Shown here: piece by piece, positions 39,653 through 46,889 of the stretch | How the letters are laid out: each line of letters begins with the position of its first letter | Position numbering within the stretch: the first letter of the stretch is position 1 | Assembly: GCF_004362805.1 (NCBI RefSeq) | Contig: NZ_SNYF01000006.1 | Coordinates: forward strand, 372,001-436,000 | Reading direction: 5' to 3' | Length of the DNA stretch: 64,000 bases | From: Algoriphagus boseongensis | GTDB taxonomy: Bacteria > Bacteroidota > Bacteroidia > Cytophagales > Cyclobacteriaceae | Position numbers and translations under genes: made by a program | Notes under the pieces: model-generated | The model's input: the letters and a program-made list of their open reading frames with translations, nothing else | Told to the model about the DNA's origin: nothing | Databases searched by the model: none

Positions 39653-40771
39653 TTGGAACCCCATAAAATTAAGGTAATAGTAATAGGAGGAGGCTTGGCG
39701 GGATTAGTATCGTCCATCTTGCTGGCCAAAAAAGGAGTTGAAGTACATCTCATTGAGAAAAAGGCCTATCCTTTTCACAGGGTTTGCGGAGAATATCTTT
39801 CCAATGAAGCGCTGGAATTCTTGAAAAAACATGGGCTTATTCCAGAGAGAAATGACATCCCGCAAATCAAGACCTTTGAGTTAAGCGATACCAAGGGAAA
39901 TATTTCCAGGATTCCATTGGATTTGGGAGGATTTGGAATCAGCAGGTATATTCTGGACGAATGGATGTACCAAAAAGCCCTACAAGATGGAGTTCAAATT
40001 CGAACTTCGACTCAAGTCAACGAAATCGAATACCTCAAAAAAGAGGACCAATTTGTTTTAACTCTTTCTGACCATTCTAGTCTCAGGGCTGATTTTGTGA
40101 TTGGAGCCCATGGCAAGCGGAGTAAGCTGGATAAAAGACTGAAAAGGGAATTTATAGAAAAGAGAAGCCCTTATTTAGGAGTGAAATACCACATCCGAAC
40201 TGAGTTTGACCGGGATTGTGTGGCTTTGTATAATTTTCATGGAGGCTATTGTGGGCTAAATGCCATTGAAGACGGCAAATTCAACCTTTGTTATCTGGGA
40301 GATCGAAATCAGCTCAGGCAATATGGTTCTGTGGAGGCCATGGAAAATGAGGTGTTATTCAAAAACCCCATACTCAAAAAAATCTGGGAATCCAGCGAAT
40401 TCATTTTCGAAAAACCAGAAGTAATCACCGAGATCAATTTTGAACCCAAAAGTCCTGTAGAAAATCACGTGCTGATGGCAGGTGATTCAGCAGGATTGAT
40501 TACCCCGCTTTGTGGAAATGGAATGGCAATGGCCATCCATGCAGGAAAATTGGCTGCCGAGGCGATCATCTATGGCAAATCCAGACTAGAAGTAGAAGAA
40601 ATGTATCGGTCCAACTGGAAAGATGAATTCGAAAAAAGGCTTTGGGTTGGACGACAGGCACAGAAACTTTTTGGCTCAGGAAAATCCTCAGGCTTTGCCC
40701 GGAAACTAATCCAAACTTTTCCTCCCCTTGCTAAAATTATTATCCGAAATACCCATGGCAAACCCTTTTGA
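39653..40771 (+). CDS. FAD-dependent oxidoreductase (geranylgeranyl reductase / phenolic-lipid hydroxylase-like)
   Basis: A 372-aa flavoprotein. The Rossmann dinucleotide motif is VIVIGGGLAGLVSSILLAKK with E-ending strand HLIEKK. The family segment HRVCGEYLSNEALEFL resembles the cysteine-containing motif of geranylgeranyl reductase-type enzymes. A second FAD motif GDSAGLITPLCGNGMAMAIHAGKLAAE (in parts) is near residue 280. No ATG precedes the FAD motif, so TTG at 39653 is used. Next to UbiA, type III PKS and methyltransferase genes, it probably hydroxylates or reduces the same phenolic or isoprenoid product. Confidence 0.85.
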   Translation: MEPHKIKVIVIGGGLAGLVSSILLAKKGVEVHLIEKKAYPFHRVCGEYLSNEALEFLKKHGLIPERNDIPQIKTFELSDTKGNISRIPLDLGGFGISRYILDEWMYQKALQDGVQIRTSTQVNEIEYLKKEDQFVLTLSDHSSLRADFVIGAHGKRSKLDKRLKREFIEKRSPYLGVKYHIRTEFDRDCVALYNFHGGYCGLNAIEDGKFNLCYLGDRNQLRQYGSVEAMENEVLFKNPILKKIWESSEFIFEKPEVITEINFEPKSPVENHVLMAGDSAGLITPLCGNGMAMAIHAGKLAAEAIIYGKSRLEVEEMYRSNWKDEFEKRLWVGRQAQKLFGSGKSSGFARKLIQTFPPLAKIIIRNTHGKPF

Positions 40772-41665
40772 TCAGTAGTTCATGACTTGCATGATCTGGG
40801 TATTTTCTAGGAAATAATAAATAAAAAAGGCATTCAGGGCGATGGCCGAAATGGAATTCATTCCCATTGCCCAGGAATAATTCGCGTAGGCTTCATTTTT
40901 TCGAATGAACACAAACCAGATCAAGAAGAAGACTAGGATTGGTGCCATGGCGCTAAGGTAGGTCCAGATGATATAATCCTGACTTCTGCTCATAAAATAC
41001 CAGATGAAACCTGCTCCGGTAAGCGTAAAGAGTAGGGATGAAAAAACGAATGTTCCTTGAATCCCTAATTTGATGCTTAGGGTTTTGTCACCTCGTTTGG
41101 AGTCTTCCTTGTGTTGATAGACTTGAGTCAAAGGATAATTTCCCCAAAGCATTAAGCTGGTCAGAAATCCGGGAATTGCTACGTGAGGTTTTATAAAAAC
41201 TCCCCAGTCCAAGTCACTCAATCCTGCATAGGCCATCGCAAAAGTGAAATATCCTTGAAAAAACCCTGCGATTATCCAGCTCAGCCATGGGTATTTTTTT
41301 AGTCGAATACTTGGGTGACTATAAGCCATGCTTACTAACCCATAGACGGCTAGCATGAGTCCAAAATTTAGACTGATCAATCCACCCAAGATTAAGGCAA
41401 TTACAAAAAACGCCTGTGCTACCCAATACAAATCCGGAGTCACTTTGGGGGGATGTTTAAGACCGCCTATGCTCTCCTCATCCTTGTCAAAATAACTGTT
41501 ATACCCGTTGCTTGAAGGATATAGAAATAGATGAAGCGCAAGAAAAACCAGTAATAAGCGGGTCTCATTTAGGTTTGGAGTCAAGGCCAAAGCAAAAAAG
41601 AAAACTGGCATCAAAAACAGGGAAAAAGGAATTCGAAGATGCTTGAGCGTGGATAAGGAGATCAT
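40772..41665 (-). CDS. UbiA-family prenyltransferase
   Basis: A 297-aa integral membrane protein with about eight hydrophobic segments. The two Asp-rich regions of UbiA are recognisable but divergent: NGYNSYFDKDEESIGG (first motif) and YQHKEDSKRGDKTLSIKLG (second motif). It should join an isoprenoid diphosphate to an aromatic or other acceptor at the membrane. Its stop directly abuts the stop of the FAD oxidoreductase, and its start is 91 bp from the divergent type III PKS. The order suggests one pathway, but the product is unknown. Confidence 0.8.
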   Translation of the reverse strand: MISLSTLKHLRIPFSLFLMPVFFFALALTPNLNETRLLLVFLALHLFLYPSSNGYNSYFDKDEESIGGLKHPPKVTPDLYWVAQAFFVIALILGGLISLNFGLMLAVYGLVSMAYSHPSIRLKKYPWLSWIIAGFFQGYFTFAMAYAGLSDLDWGVFIKPHVAIPGFLTSLMLWGNYPLTQVYQHKEDSKRGDKTLSIKLGIQGTFVFSSLLFTLTGAGFIWYFMSRSQDYIIWTYLSAMAPILVFFLIWFVFIRKNEAYANYSWAMGMNSISAIALNAFFIYYFLENTQIMQVMNY

Positions 41666-41756
41666 GCGAATATTTTGTGGAAATAATAACCTTAGTCAAG
41701 GTCATTGGTTTTCTAAGAGTTGATCCAATATAGAAATATTCACGTAACTTGATTTT

Positions 41757-42836
41757 ATGAATTCCAGCATAGTCAGTATCGGACTTGCCAACCCAGGAAC
41801 ACCCATCGCCCAGTCAGAAATTTCAAATTTCATGCAGTTGGCTCATGGGCTGAATGCCGAGGAAAGTCGAAAATTGAGTTTTTTATATAAAATGTCTGGG
41901 ATCGATTTCCGGCATAGCGTTCTTCAGGATTTTCAAAAATCTGATTACAAGGATTTTGAATTTTTCCCGGCAAATGAGACCCTTTCTCCTTTTCCCGGCA
42001 CCAAATCCAGAATGGAAGTCTTCCAGAAACATGCCCCAGATTTGGCTGCCGAGGCCGCAATGTCCTGTTTGGAAAAAGTAGGCGTTGCAGCTAATGAGAT
42101 CACCCATCTGATTTTGGTTTCCTGCACAGGCATGGTAGCTCCGGGTGTGGAACTTCAGTTGATCGAAAGATTAGGCTTAGATCAAACTGTGGAGCGGTAT
42201 TGCATTCACTTTATGGGCTGTTATGCAGCTTTTACCGGACTTAAGCTTGCGGATAAAATTCTTCGAGCCGAACCAGAAGCAAGGGTTTTGGTGGTTACAG
42301 TGGAATTATGCACGCTACATTTTCAGCAAGAATTCACTGAGGACAATGTTTTGGCCAACTCCCTTTTTGGAGACGGAGCAGCAGCGGCTTTGGTACAGAA
42401 TGATTCTCAAGGGCTAAAAATCCAATCCTATTTGAGTCAAGTGCTTTGGGAGGGCAAGCAAGACATGGCGTGGGCGATCGGGGATTTTGGCTTTGAAATG
42501 AAATTAAGCAAGTACATTCCCGGGCTTTTGGATCAAGGGGTCAGGAAGCTGAATGAATTGTTTGAAATGAAATTTGGCCTGAGCCAAATCCGAAATTTCG
42601 CCATCCATCCAGGTGGAAAACAGATCCTTCAAAAAGTGCAGGAGGCCTTCGGCTTGCCTGATGAAATAAATACCCATGCCCGGGAAGTTCTTCGGAAATT
42701 TGGAAACATGTCCTCTTCGACCATCTTATTTTTACTTCATCGAATGCTTCATGCTGAGGAAATTCAGGGAGATATTTTAGCCATGGGATTTGGTCCAGGC
42801 TTGACTTTAGAGACACTTCATCTCAAGAAACGATGA
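41757..42836 (+). CDS. Type III polyketide synthase (chalcone/stilbene synthase-like)
   Basis: A 359-aa thiolase-fold homodimer-type synthase. The catalytic triad is intact: Cys155 (HFMGCYAAFTG), His284 (FAIHPGGKQIL) and Asn317 (GNMSSSTILF). Bacterial members make alkylresorcinols, alkylpyrones or phloroglucinol from malonyl-CoA, sometimes with long acyl starters; which applies here cannot be told. The length equals the family norm. The stop overlaps the start of the methyltransferase by 4 nt (ATGA), showing translational coupling. Confidence 0.93.
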   Translation: MNSSIVSIGLANPGTPIAQSEISNFMQLAHGLNAEESRKLSFLYKMSGIDFRHSVLQDFQKSDYKDFEFFPANETLSPFPGTKSRMEVFQKHAPDLAAEAAMSCLEKVGVAANEITHLILVSCTGMVAPGVELQLIERLGLDQTVERYCIHFMGCYAAFTGLKLADKILRAEPEARVLVVTVELCTLHFQQEFTEDNVLANSLFGDGAAAALVQNDSQGLKIQSYLSQVLWEGKQDMAWAIGDFGFEMKLSKYIPGLLDQGVRKLNELFEMKFGLSQIRNFAIHPGGKQILQKVQEAFGLPDEINTHAREVLRKFGNMSSSTILFLLHRMLHAEEIQGDILAMGFGPGLTLETLHLKKR

Positions 42837-43540
42837 GCATTTTCTCCCAAAGAAGCACGCAAAAAGAACTGATGGATGACCTGGATTGCTCAGGTCCTGT
42901 CTTGGAGCAAACGCTGAGGGAACTCAAAACAATCAATCGCTGGCTGGGAGGAAATCATGTGACCACCAATGGTATCCGAAAAATTTTAAAAAAGAAAAAA
43001 GTCCAAACTTCCTATGAGGTTACTGACTTGGGATGTGGTGGAGGAGATATGATTCAAGTGATGGACCATTGGGCAAAAAAGGCTAGAATCCCCATGAAAT
43101 TCCTCGGAATAGACGCCAATAGGAACATTATTGAGCTGGCAAAGGTTAGACAAAAAGAAATCGGAAATGCCCGATGGGAAGTGTGCAATGTTTTTGACCC
43201 TGATTTTTCAAAAGAAAAAACAGATTTGGTCACCTGCACTTTGTTTACCCATCATTTCACTGACCAGGAATTGGTCGGGATTTTAAAAGCCTCAAGGGAA
43301 AAAGCTAGACTTGGCCTGGTGATAAACGATCTCCATCGTCATCCTTTTGCCTATTACAGCATCAAATGGCTAACCCGTTTTTTTTCTCGGTCTCCTATGG
43401 TTCAGCATGACGCAGCCCTTTCAGTTTTGAGGAGTTTTTCTAGGAAAGACTGGGAAAAAATTCTCCAAGAATCGGGAATTGAAAAATTCAAAATTCGTTG
43501 GTTTTGGGCTTTCCGTTGGCAAATTTGTATTGAATTTTAA
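42833..43540 (+). CDS. SAM-dependent class I methyltransferase
   Basis: A 235-aa Rossmann-type methyltransferase. Motif I is VTDLGCGGGDMIQVM, motif II includes FLGIDANRNIIELA, and motif III is DLVTCTLFTHHFTD. Position behind the type III PKS with a 4-nt overlap mirrors the SrsA-SrsB or BpsA-BpsB pairs that methylate phenolic lipids, so O- or C-methylation of the PKS product is likely (inference). N-terminal 60 residues are helical and Lys-rich. Confidence 0.88.
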   Translation: MSIFSQRSTQKELMDDLDCSGPVLEQTLRELKTINRWLGGNHVTTNGIRKILKKKKVQTSYEVTDLGCGGGDMIQVMDHWAKKARIPMKFLGIDANRNIIELAKVRQKEIGNARWEVCNVFDPDFSKEKTDLVTCTLFTHHFTDQELVGILKASREKARLGLVINDLHRHPFAYYSIKWLTRFFSRSPMVQHDAALSVLRSFSRKDWEKILQESGIEKFKIRWFWAFRWQICIEF

Positions 43541-44421: not shown

Positions 44422-45270
44422 TTAAGACCTTGGTAAGGTCACCGTTTTTGTTTCTCCGTTTGCAGTGATGGTCACTTCTTTGTCGCAGCCAGTTTCTCCG
44501 AAATCAATGGTCATTTTTTCTCTGCCTTGAACCTGAATTTGTAGGATTCCCTTACTGGGAACGCGTATTCCGGATTTGATGCATCGTTCAAAGAAAACCA
44601 GAGGACTGGTGATTTCAGAGACAAATTCATTCCCATTTCTATTTTTGCCCTTACTTCCACCGGTGATCACATACATCACTCCTCGTTCGGAGTTGGGTAA
44701 AAACACCTTCTTAGTATGCCTTGCTTCGAAGGTTCGGAAAGTTCCGTCTGGCCAGGTGATTTTTCCCCCTTCTACTACCGTTTTGAAAGTGAAGAATTTG
44801 TCATTTTCATTGAATCCTTCATTGGTTACTACCCGGATACCTTCGATCTTTCTTTCATCCACATAGTAGTTTTCGAATCGGGTAGTGATTTTAGTTCCAG
44901 GCGTCCAATATCTCCCTGTGTAGGTTACGATGATTTTACCTTTTCTTACCACTCCTCTCGGGCTGGTGCATCCCTCTCCGAAGTCGATGATCATTTTCTT
45001 TTCACCCGGCATCCAAGTGATGGATACTTTTTCACAAAGGTCCTCCTCCATGGTGACCAAAGTGCGGTCAGTAAAGCCATTTCTTTGAAAACCAGTCAGT
45101 GTTACATCATCGATGTCTTCCAAGGTTGCAGTCAGGTCTACTTCTTGGGCCGTTTCATTTGTTTCTTCCAGCTGGGGAGTAGGGGAGGTATCCTCATTTT
45201 GGCAGGACGAAATAATCCAGAGCCCGAATGTGAGCAAAAGGATTGATTGGGAAAGATGCTTTAGCTTCAT
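44422..45270 (-). CDS. Lipoprotein, paralogue of the one at 46059
   Basis: A 282-aa predicted lipoprotein (signal LLLTFGLWIISSC, Cys about residue 22). Beta-rich domain with CEKVSITWMPGEKKMIIDFGEGC, GVVRKGKIIVTYTGRYW, FENYYVDERKIEGIRVV and the closing MTIDFGETGCDKEVTI. Matching segments occur in the same order in the lipoprotein at 46059-46889. Repeated paired Cys residues may form disulfides. Function unknown. Separated from its paralogue by a nitroreductase gene on the same strand. Confidence 0.78.
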   Translation of the reverse strand: MKLKHLSQSILLLTFGLWIISSCQNEDTSPTPQLEETNETAQEVDLTATLEDIDDVTLTGFQRNGFTDRTLVTMEEDLCEKVSITWMPGEKKMIIDFGEGCTSPRGVVRKGKIIVTYTGRYWTPGTKITTRFENYYVDERKIEGIRVVTNEGFNENDKFFTFKTVVEGGKITWPDGTFRTFEARHTKKVFLPNSERGVMYVITGGSKGKNRNGNEFVSEITSPLVFFERCIKSGIRVPSKGILQIQVQGREKMTIDFGETGCDKEVTITANGETKTVTLPRS

Positions 45271-45327
45271 GGTAGATAGATTTAGATTAGTAAAAACATC
45301 CTTTTGATTCCAAATTGGCACCAAGGT

Positions 45328-46058: not shown

Positions 46059-46889
46059 TCAGTCTGCTGTGATTTCTCTTGTTCCTCCCGGATAGGTGAT
46101 CAAAATTTTCTTGTCACAATTTCCAGCGCCATAATCAGCGGAAATTACAATTCCCTGATAGGTTAACTCAAGAATACCAGCAATAGGGATATAAACACCT
46201 GTGGTTACACAAGATTGTTTGACCATTAGGTCCTGTGTGATGGCAAGGCTATAGTCTTTTCCTTCTCTGCTTTTTCCGGAAGCTGTTCCGGCGATTGAAG
46301 CTTCATACCCAGTACTTCCTAACTTTAATTTTCTAACCTGATCACTGTTGAAGGTGACAAAGGTGTTGTCAGGCCAGGTGACTTTTCCATTTTCAATTTT
46401 TACGGCCAAAGTAATGGTAGAAGAAGCCAAGTCCACACCTGAATTGGTGAGTGTTCTTCGCCCTTCGATTTTATATCCGTTTACTTCGTAGCCTTCGAAT
46501 GTGGCCACGATGGAAGTTCCAGGAAATAGGAAGTTGGTGCCGGAATAGGTAAAAATGATTTTCCCTTTTCTCACATTTCCTTGAGGTCCGGTACATCCTG
46601 TTGTTCCAAAGTTCACGGTTATTTTCTTGGCATTTAAGTCATGATTTACTGTAGCCCCAGCGCAAAGGGTAGTCATACCCGTGGTTCTAAGTCCTAAGCC
46701 ACTGCTCTGCATCACATCAATGGTGACATTGTCCAAATCCTCGAATGTTGAATTCACTACCACTTCATCTTCAAAAGCACCAATGGCAGGCTCAGGATTC
46801 AAAGGGGCATCGTCTTCCTTACAGGAGAATAAAAGGAAAGTGGAAAGCAATAGAATTGGTCCACTTAAGTTGAAAATTGATTTTTTCAT
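46059..46889 (-). CDS. Lipoprotein, paralogue of the one at 44422
   Basis: A 276-aa predicted lipoprotein (signal MKKSIFNLSGPILLLSTFLL, lipobox FSC). It shares with the gene at 44422 the sequence of ITVNFGTTGCTGPQGNVRKG, KIIFTYSGTNFLFPGTSI, FEGYEVNGYKIEGRR and a CDKKILIT-type ending. The two are therefore duplicates of one beta-rich surface domain. It ends at its own terminator ahead of the nitroreductase. No family name recognised and no function known. Confidence 0.78.
   Translation of the reverse strand: MKKSIFNLSGPILLLSTFLLFSCKEDDAPLNPEPAIGAFEDEVVVNSTFEDLDNVTIDVMQSSGLGLRTTGMTTLCAGATVNHDLNAKKITVNFGTTGCTGPQGNVRKGKIIFTYSGTNFLFPGTSIVATFEGYEVNGYKIEGRRTLTNSGVDLASSTITLAVKIENGKVTWPDNTFVTFNSDQVRKLKLGSTGYEASIAGTASGKSREGKDYSLAITQDLMVKQSCVTTGVYIPIAGILELTYQGIVISADYGAGNCDKKILITYPGGTREITAD

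What the first reader, a model, noticed from the sequence alone, without database searches (positions are those of the whole stretch)
39653..43540. Uncharacterised type III PKS / UbiA / FAD oxidoreductase / methyltransferase cluster
Four genes that together could build a methylated, prenylated or reduced phenolic or quinone lipid are packed within 3.9 kb. The type III PKS has an intact Cys155-His284-Asn317 triad and overlaps a methyltransferase by 4 nt (compare srsA-srsB and bpsA-bpsB). The UbiA and FAD genes abut stop to stop. A UbiA enzyme next to a type III PKS is unlike the simple Srs/Bps operons and suggests a meroterpenoid or prenyl-phenol product not readable from the sequence.
Basis: partly seen in the sequence, partly recalled or inferred. 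Interest (0 to 1): 0.75.

Follow-up and report, generated by a model that had tools for sequence, protein, structure and literature searches.

The report
Conserved polyketide-prenyltransferase pathway in Bacteroidota
Four neighbouring genes in an Algoriphagus bacterium very probably make a methylated, oxidised and prenylated phenolic lipid; the same four genes keep company across many Bacteroidota families, and their membrane enzyme carries an unusual, strictly conserved active-site motif, but a comparable cluster with a known product exists in an actinobacterium.

Summary
FAD flavoprotein, UbiA, type III PKS and methyltransferase lie at 39653-43540 of an Algoriphagus genome, with an intact Cys-His-Asn triad, a 4-nt PKS/MT overlap and FAD/UbiA abutting stop to stop.

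Gene order is conserved in 43 of 44 named loci (the 44th is cut by a contig end). The UbiA is not the genome's MenA, CyoE, EboC or DGGGPS-like gene. Of 31 genomes with this PKS clade, 31 carry the UbiA, 30 the FAD and 28 the MT, although UbiA is unlinked to the PKS in 12; nine order relatives without PKS have 0, 0 and 1. Two close relatives show the empty site. A third lost PKS, MT and FAD and keeps a UbiA that has lost 12 of 18 otherwise invariant residues.

Most likely an agq/Srs-like pathway to a prenylated, methylated, oxidised phenolic or quinone lipid. What is new is the wide, strict co-occurrence and a UbiA subfamily with QxxQxxxD in place of DxxDxxxD and NSxxDxD in place of NDxxDxxxD. 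Prenyl transfer is therefore inferred; the product is unknown.

The parts
39653..40771 (+). FAD-dependent oxidoreductase (monooxygenase / geranylgeranyl-reductase / halogenase superfamily), 372 aa, TTG start
   Evidence: AF2 model pLDDT 92.2; nearest solved folds PltA halogenase Z 36.5, 3-hydroxybenzoate 6-hydroxylase Z 32.4, GGR-like 3oz2 Z 32.0
40772..41665 (-). UbiA-superfamily membrane protein, 297 aa, with NSxxDxD and QxxQxxxD motifs
   Evidence: Pfam UbiA 65.6 bits; AF2 pLDDT 95.6; 4tq4 AfUbiA Z 23.0, rmsd 3.6, 274 aligned; motif counts
41666..41756 (.). 91-bp divergent intergenic region between UbiA and PKS
   Evidence: coordinates; sequence printed
41757..42836 (+). type III polyketide synthase, 359 aa, Cys155-His284-Asn317
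42833..43540 (+). class I SAM-dependent methyltransferase, 235 aa, overlaps PKS by 4 nt
   Evidence: NCBIfam PRK06202-like 147 bits, below its cut-off of 243

Best explanation
A four-gene lipid pathway. The type III PKS condenses an acyl starter with malonyl-CoA to an alkylresorcinol- or pyrone-type ring; the methyltransferase and the FAD enzyme methylate and oxidise the ring (as in hid, srs and agq pathways); the UbiA-fold membrane enzyme attaches a prenyl group (C- or O-prenylation), giving a membrane-resident prenylated methoxy- or methyl-phenol/hydroquinone. Shown here: the genes, their conservation, their co-occurrence even when unlinked, and the predicted folds. Inferred: every chemical step, the starter, the prenyl length and the order of steps.
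For: Same order in 43 of 44 named loci. In 31 genomes of this PKS clade: UbiA 31 of 31, FAD 30 of 31, MT 28 of 31, with UbiA unlinked to the PKS in 12 of 31 (coordinates). Nine order relatives without PKS: UbiA 0, FAD 0, MT 1. In 296 phylum genomes all 47 with this UbiA (one of them a partial gene) also have a T3PKS, which 133 of 296 have. Exact empty site in G026 and G030. G015 lost PKS, MT and FAD, and its leftover UbiA kept only 6 of 18 invariant residues. UbiA fold at Z 23.0 to AfUbiA with DMAPP/Mg. Known parallel with a product: agq.
Against: Of the five Asp whose Ala mutants strongly reduce MjDGGGPS activity (D66, D70, D180, D183, D187; passage of PMC9385802), the equivalents of three are not Asp here: position 64 is variable and Q181 and Q184 are Gln in 85 of 86 sequences. 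No product is known. FAD is not found in G049, nor MT in G045, G039 and G049; one PKS-negative genome, G053, has the MT. In family f41, 8 of 35 PKS genomes lack the UbiA, and 78 further PKS genomes of other PKS types lack it. Homology to AgqD could not be tested. Counts are not corrected for relatedness.
Confidence: 0.6

Rival explanations
1. Same pathway, but the FAD enzyme is a geranylgeranyl-reductase-type saturase that reduces the attached prenyl chain, rather than a ring oxygenase.
For: The best NCBIfam hit is GG-red-SF (108 bits, below its cut-off of 158.8); an invariant C45-G46-E47 motif recalls the GGR Cys motif (recalled, no call); GGR-like 3oz2 Z 32.0; the agq product carries a dihydrogeranyl.
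Against: Close relatives of this FAD gene sit in FAD-MT-PKS loci with no UbiA (L125, L133, L134, L137), from genomes not among the UbiA-positive ones. Halogenase and hydroxylase folds score as high or higher.
Confidence: 0.2
2. The UbiA-fold protein is not a prenyl diphosphate transferase: the rewired motifs serve another donor or reaction acting on the PKS product.
For: Q181 and Q184 are Gln in 85 of 86 sequences (the exception is the decayed G015 gene), where the genome's own DGGGPS-like paralogue has Asp (KDIEDRPGD aligned with TQVYQHKED). The superfamily does hold a branch with a quite different reaction, DPPR synthase (PMC3227686 passage).
Against: D60, D62, D188, R121 and K123 are invariant outside G015, enough in principle for one metal and a diphosphate; DMAPP/GPP-bound AfUbiA ranks above the membrane PRTase (Z 23.0 and 22.5 against 16.3).
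Confidence: 0.15
3. The UbiA is a bystander or housekeeping enzyme and the cluster makes a plain srs/hid-type phenolic lipid.
For: PKS-MT-FAD without an adjacent UbiA is common, also outside the phylum.
Against: Co-occurrence 31 of 31 with 12 unlinked; MenA, CyoE, EboC and DGGGPS-like genes are separate genes in this genome; UbiA decay after partner loss in G015.
Confidence: 0.05

Closest known systems
agqABCD, Actinoplanes missouriensis (alkyl-O-dihydrogeranyl-methoxyhydroquinones)
   Same: Type III PKS plus a UbiA-like membrane prenyltransferase (AgqD) in a four-gene cluster whose product is alkylated, methoxylated, hydroxylated and prenylated (passages; the original paper is not held, and the gene-by-gene assignment of agqB and agqC is recalled).
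   Different: Different phylum and gene order. PMC4044012 says enzymes of this group contain typical motifs, e.g. NxxxDxxxD; here position 64 is not a conserved Asp and motif 3 is QxxQxxxD.
hidABC (hierridin) and planctomycete MT-FAD-T3PKS operons
   Same: Methyltransferase, FAD oxidoreductase and type III PKS together; T3PKS products are alkylresorcinols (passages of PMC10896814, and PMC8086630).
   Different: No UbiA named in the passages seen; one cyanobacterial hid-like cluster has a prenyltransferase of unstated type.
Micromonospora endolithica losA locus
   Same: UbiA-family prenyltransferase, methyltransferase, and T3PKS genes listed within four consecutive rows (table passage of PMC7587189).
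   Different: An acyl-CoA dehydrogenase is listed between MT and T3PKS, no FAD oxidoreductase in the rows seen; title and start of abstract speak of alkylresorcinols made by the expressed T3PKS.
Ubi-297 / EboC (ebo cluster)
   Same: UbiA-like prenyltransferase, also tested from an Algoriphagus (PMC9235831, parts 1 and 2 of 4 read).
   Different: A separate gene in this genome (L079, beside ebo-type genes); Asp motif described as similar to DXXDXXXD; farnesylates quinolines.

Membership tests
UbiA superfamily | UbiA profile over cut-off and UbiA fold | tested here: met
   65.6 bits against 34.2; predicted model Z 23.0, rmsd 3.6, 274 aligned to 4tq4
UbiA superfamily prenyltransferases with canonical motifs | Motif 1 N-x3-D-x3-D and motif 3 D-x2-D-x3-D | tested here: not met
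   N56, D60 and D188 are kept in all 85 sequences other than G015; position 64 is E 39, G 32, K 7, D 3, Q 1 of 86 (five commonest letters shown); Q181 and Q184 in 85 of 86
MenA / CyoE / EboC / DGGGPS-like groups | Groups with that paralogue | tested here: not met
   Five UbiA genes in the genome, the other four elsewhere (their names are my reading of neighbours and motifs); 18-23% identity over local stretches of 66-276 columns, and a separate branch in a FastTree tree without printed support
agq-type cluster | T3PKS, MT, FAD enzyme and UbiA-like gene together | tested here: met
agq-type cluster | UbiA homologous to AgqD; prenylated alkylresorcinol-derived product | not testable with these tools
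srs/hid-type T3PKS-MT-FAD operon | T3PKS with MT and FAD-dependent oxidoreductase genes | tested here: met
srs/hid-type T3PKS-MT-FAD operon | PKS makes alkylresorcinol | not testable with these tools
   At the PKS18 positions that I recall as tunnel residues (C205, A209), Cys is kept and Ala is Phe in the alignment: mixed
DpgA (3,5-dihydroxyphenylacetyl-CoA synthase) | NCBIfam equivalog cut-off | tested here: not met
   136.2 bits against cut-off 425

The most novel reading that the evidence does not exclude
A new enzyme type within the UbiA fold: a membrane transferase whose second metal site (DxxDxxxD) has been replaced by a QxxQxxxD site, with D60/D62 as the remaining metal pair. It works obligately on a type III PKS product across many Bacteroidota families and makes an undescribed class of membrane phenolic/quinone lipid, possibly with a donor other than a prenyl diphosphate.
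Probability: 0.2. Interest if true: 0.75.

Novelty: new variant of a known kind. Interest (0 to 1): 0.5.

Why it matters
T3PKS clusters are reported in Bacteroidota genome surveys, and in the passages I saw no product is assigned to them (PMC10752948, PMC10734526, PMC12565237). The result splits these T3PKSs into types, ties one type to a specific UbiA subfamily by co-occurrence, and names the partner genes even where they are scattered. It also offers a UbiA subfamily in which the usual two-site metal chemistry can be questioned by simple mutants.

Tried and rejected
Ubi-297 looked like a match by its name and by the 297-aa length of the window UbiA; it is EboC, a different gene. DpgA rejected by score. 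No PDB chain matches the UbiA by sequence at E up to 1, so fold was used. Plasmid collection: no UbiA relative at 1e-5; T3PKS relatives in 177 records, FAD relatives in 21. I opened eight plasmid records (six T3PKS hits; two FAD hits), hoping among other things for an actinobacterial T3PKS-UbiA pair; three held no annotation in the stretch. Six of the eight were searched for UbiA genes: those over cut-off lay far from the PKS. AgqD could therefore not be compared. PKS-negative G011 is an assembly gap, its contig ends inside the FAD gene; G013 is 67% complete and shows nothing either way. The Fisher test (p 2e-19 for 47/0/86/163) ignores relatedness and is only a guide. The Psychrobacter plasmid PKS (L250) falls inside the window's PKS clade but its plasmid has no UbiA over cut-off; its chromosome was not tested. 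In the FAD and MT searches some matches are split or contain a stop (G055 FAD in two pieces, G047 FAD one TAA, G218 MT one TAG) and are counted as present.

Literature searches on this combination: (no paper holds all terms; 11 of 11 listed; 19 of 19; 4 of 4), and four capped lists: 14 (20 of 76), 17 (25 of 39), 34 (20 of 356), 83 (25 of 93). Among the papers listed, judged by title, start of abstract and the passages opened, none describes a T3PKS-UbiA cluster in Bacteroidota. Only open-licence full texts are held, and unlisted papers were not seen.
Full report
Anatomy. The window lies in G000:C2:372001-436000; its closest named PKS matches are Algoriphagus species. Flanks are a DUF4953/5117/5118 met-zincin and a FUR-family gene on one side and a MscS channel on the other. 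The triad Cys155, His284, Asn317 is present.

Conservation. Of 44 named loci fetched with the PKS, 43 show FAD> UbiA< PKS> MT> in the same order and orientation; titles include Algoriphagus, Litoribacter, Arthrospiribacter, Pararhodonellum, Belliella, Anditalea and several MAGs. In two other genomes of the same family (L110, L112) the flanks differ but the block is the same, and elsewhere it is rearranged as UbiA>PKS>MT>FAD, so the block is not carried along by general synteny alone. I fetched 80 further Bacteroidota PKS loci, chosen by me for family spread from the hits. UbiA lies within 500 bp of the PKS in 14 of 80, MT within 100 bp in 52 of 80, and a FAD-profile match (two subfamilies) within 1200 bp in 46 of 80.

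Is the UbiA a housekeeping gene? No. The genome has five UbiA-family genes. By neighbours and motifs (my reading) the other four are CyoE (next to cytochrome oxidase genes), MenA, EboC (next to ebo-type genes) and a DGGGPS-like gene. Local identity to them is 18-23%, and the window UbiA and its relatives form a separate branch.

Co-occurrence. A profile of the UbiA subfamily (A1, 42 sequences) over 296 phylum genomes gives a clean gap: 46 genomes at 277 bits or more, one partial gene with a stop (G148, 144.6 bits), and every other match at 54.3 bits or less. All 47 are among the 133 genomes with a T3PKS. By PKS similarity and family they are 20 genomes of the window's PKS clade and 27 of the 35 PKS genomes of family f41 (another class; 8 of 35 lack the UbiA). 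The other 78 PKS genomes have none above the gap. In the tree of 93 PKS sequences (93 of 97 loci tried gave 300 residues or more), 17 of those 20 and 12 of those 27 are sampled, and they fall in these two clades only; f41 members without UbiA (G083, G133) sit among those with it. The tree left six order-level genomes of the window's clade with UbiA untested; the profile then found it in all six, each unlinked to the PKS. Altogether, in 31 genomes of this clade (20 plus 11 order relatives; G052, G057, G163, G245 and G324 were placed by PKS similarity and are not in the tree): UbiA 31, FAD 30 (not G049), MT 28 (not G045, G039, G049). UbiA and PKS are linked in 19 and unlinked (another contig or far away) in 12. 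Nine order relatives without PKS: UbiA 0, FAD 0, MT 1 (G053). These counts are not corrected for relatedness.

Losses. Five genomes of the same genus had no PKS match. G011 ends at a contig edge inside FAD; G013 is 67% complete. G026 and G030 have the met-zincin and MscS genes with about 450 bp between them and none of the four genes: the block is absent exactly. G015 (100% complete) lacks PKS, FAD and MT and keeps an open UbiA frame at the same site (48% identity). Of 18 positions invariant in the other 85 sequences it keeps 6, against 41 of 80 at positions 70-95% conserved and 88 of 190 at variable ones; the ordinary relative L032 keeps 18 of 18. N56, S57, D60, D62, Q181, Q184 and D188 are all changed or absent. 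This is one genome, but it suggests that those residues matter only while the partners are present.

The unusual motif. Ala mutants of Asp66, 70, 180, 183 and 187 strongly reduce MjDGGGPS activity (passage of PMC9385802). In the window subfamily motif 1 reads NSxxDxD, with the D70 equivalent variable, and motif 3 reads QxxQxxxD: Q181 and Q184 in 85 of 86 sequences. The genome's own DGGGPS-like paralogue has DxxDxxxD in the same columns. The AlphaFold model (pLDDT 95.6) matches AfUbiA bound to DMAPP/Mg at Z 23.0, rmsd 3.6, 274 residues, so the predicted fold is plainly UbiA. R121, K123, D60, D62 and D188 stay invariant outside G015. A diphosphate and at least one metal could still bind; whether the donor is a prenyl diphosphate is inferred.

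The FAD enzyme. Best solved folds are PltA-type halogenases (Z 36.5), then ring hydroxylases (Z 32.4) and a geranylgeranyl-reductase-like protein (Z 32.0); NCBIfam's best hit, GG-red-SF, is below its cut-off. The same FAD family stands with MT and PKS in four loci without UbiA (L125, L133, L134, L137), which favours action on the PKS product rather than on the prenyl chain.

Mechanism. PKS makes a resorcinol or pyrone ring with an alkyl tail; MT and FAD tailor the ring; UbiA adds an isoprenoid in the membrane. All steps are inferred from family knowledge and from srs, hid and agq (passages of PMC10896814; PMC8086630; PMC3227686).

Known versus new. T3PKS with a UbiA-like prenyltransferase in a four-gene cluster with a known product exists in Actinoplanes (agq; the original paper is not held, I saw passages of citing papers). 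I therefore rate the finding a new variant of a known kind: different phylum, wide and strict co-occurrence, altered UbiA motifs, product unknown.

Noticed in passing
L133, L134, L137 (and L125): A distinct Bacteroidota T3PKS type: FAD-MT-PKS followed by a beta-ketoacyl synthase (Pfam over cut-off for L137:6205-7470) and further small conserved genes, no UbiA. Suggests a pathway that mixes type II and type III PKS genes.
   Followed up: partly
L135, L136, L144, L146, L154, L170, L178, L179, L181, L189: T3PKS followed by an ICMT-family methyltransferase (PF04140 for L181:8734-9234), a bps-like pair in 10 of 80 loci.
   Followed up: partly
L158, L149, L143 and other f41 loci: In family f41, PKS-MT-FAD is often preceded by a MATE transporter (PF01554 for L158:9149-10489) and a protein of about 1290 aa of unknown kind, while the UbiA lies elsewhere in the genome.
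   Followed up: partly
L254 (Hymenobacter swuensis plasmid pHsw1): A relative of the FAD enzyme (36%) sits beside an isonitrile synthase and a TauD-family dioxygenase, so the family serves other pathways too.
   Followed up: no
44422-45324 and 46059-46889: Two related predicted secreted proteins (102 of 276 aligned columns identical) flank a nitroreductase; function unknown.
   Followed up: no
L250 (Psychrobacter urativorans plasmid 5): A T3PKS that falls inside the window's Bacteroidota clade of the tree, on a gammaproteobacterial plasmid, with FAD and MT beside it and a recombinase nearby: a likely transfer.
   Followed up: partly
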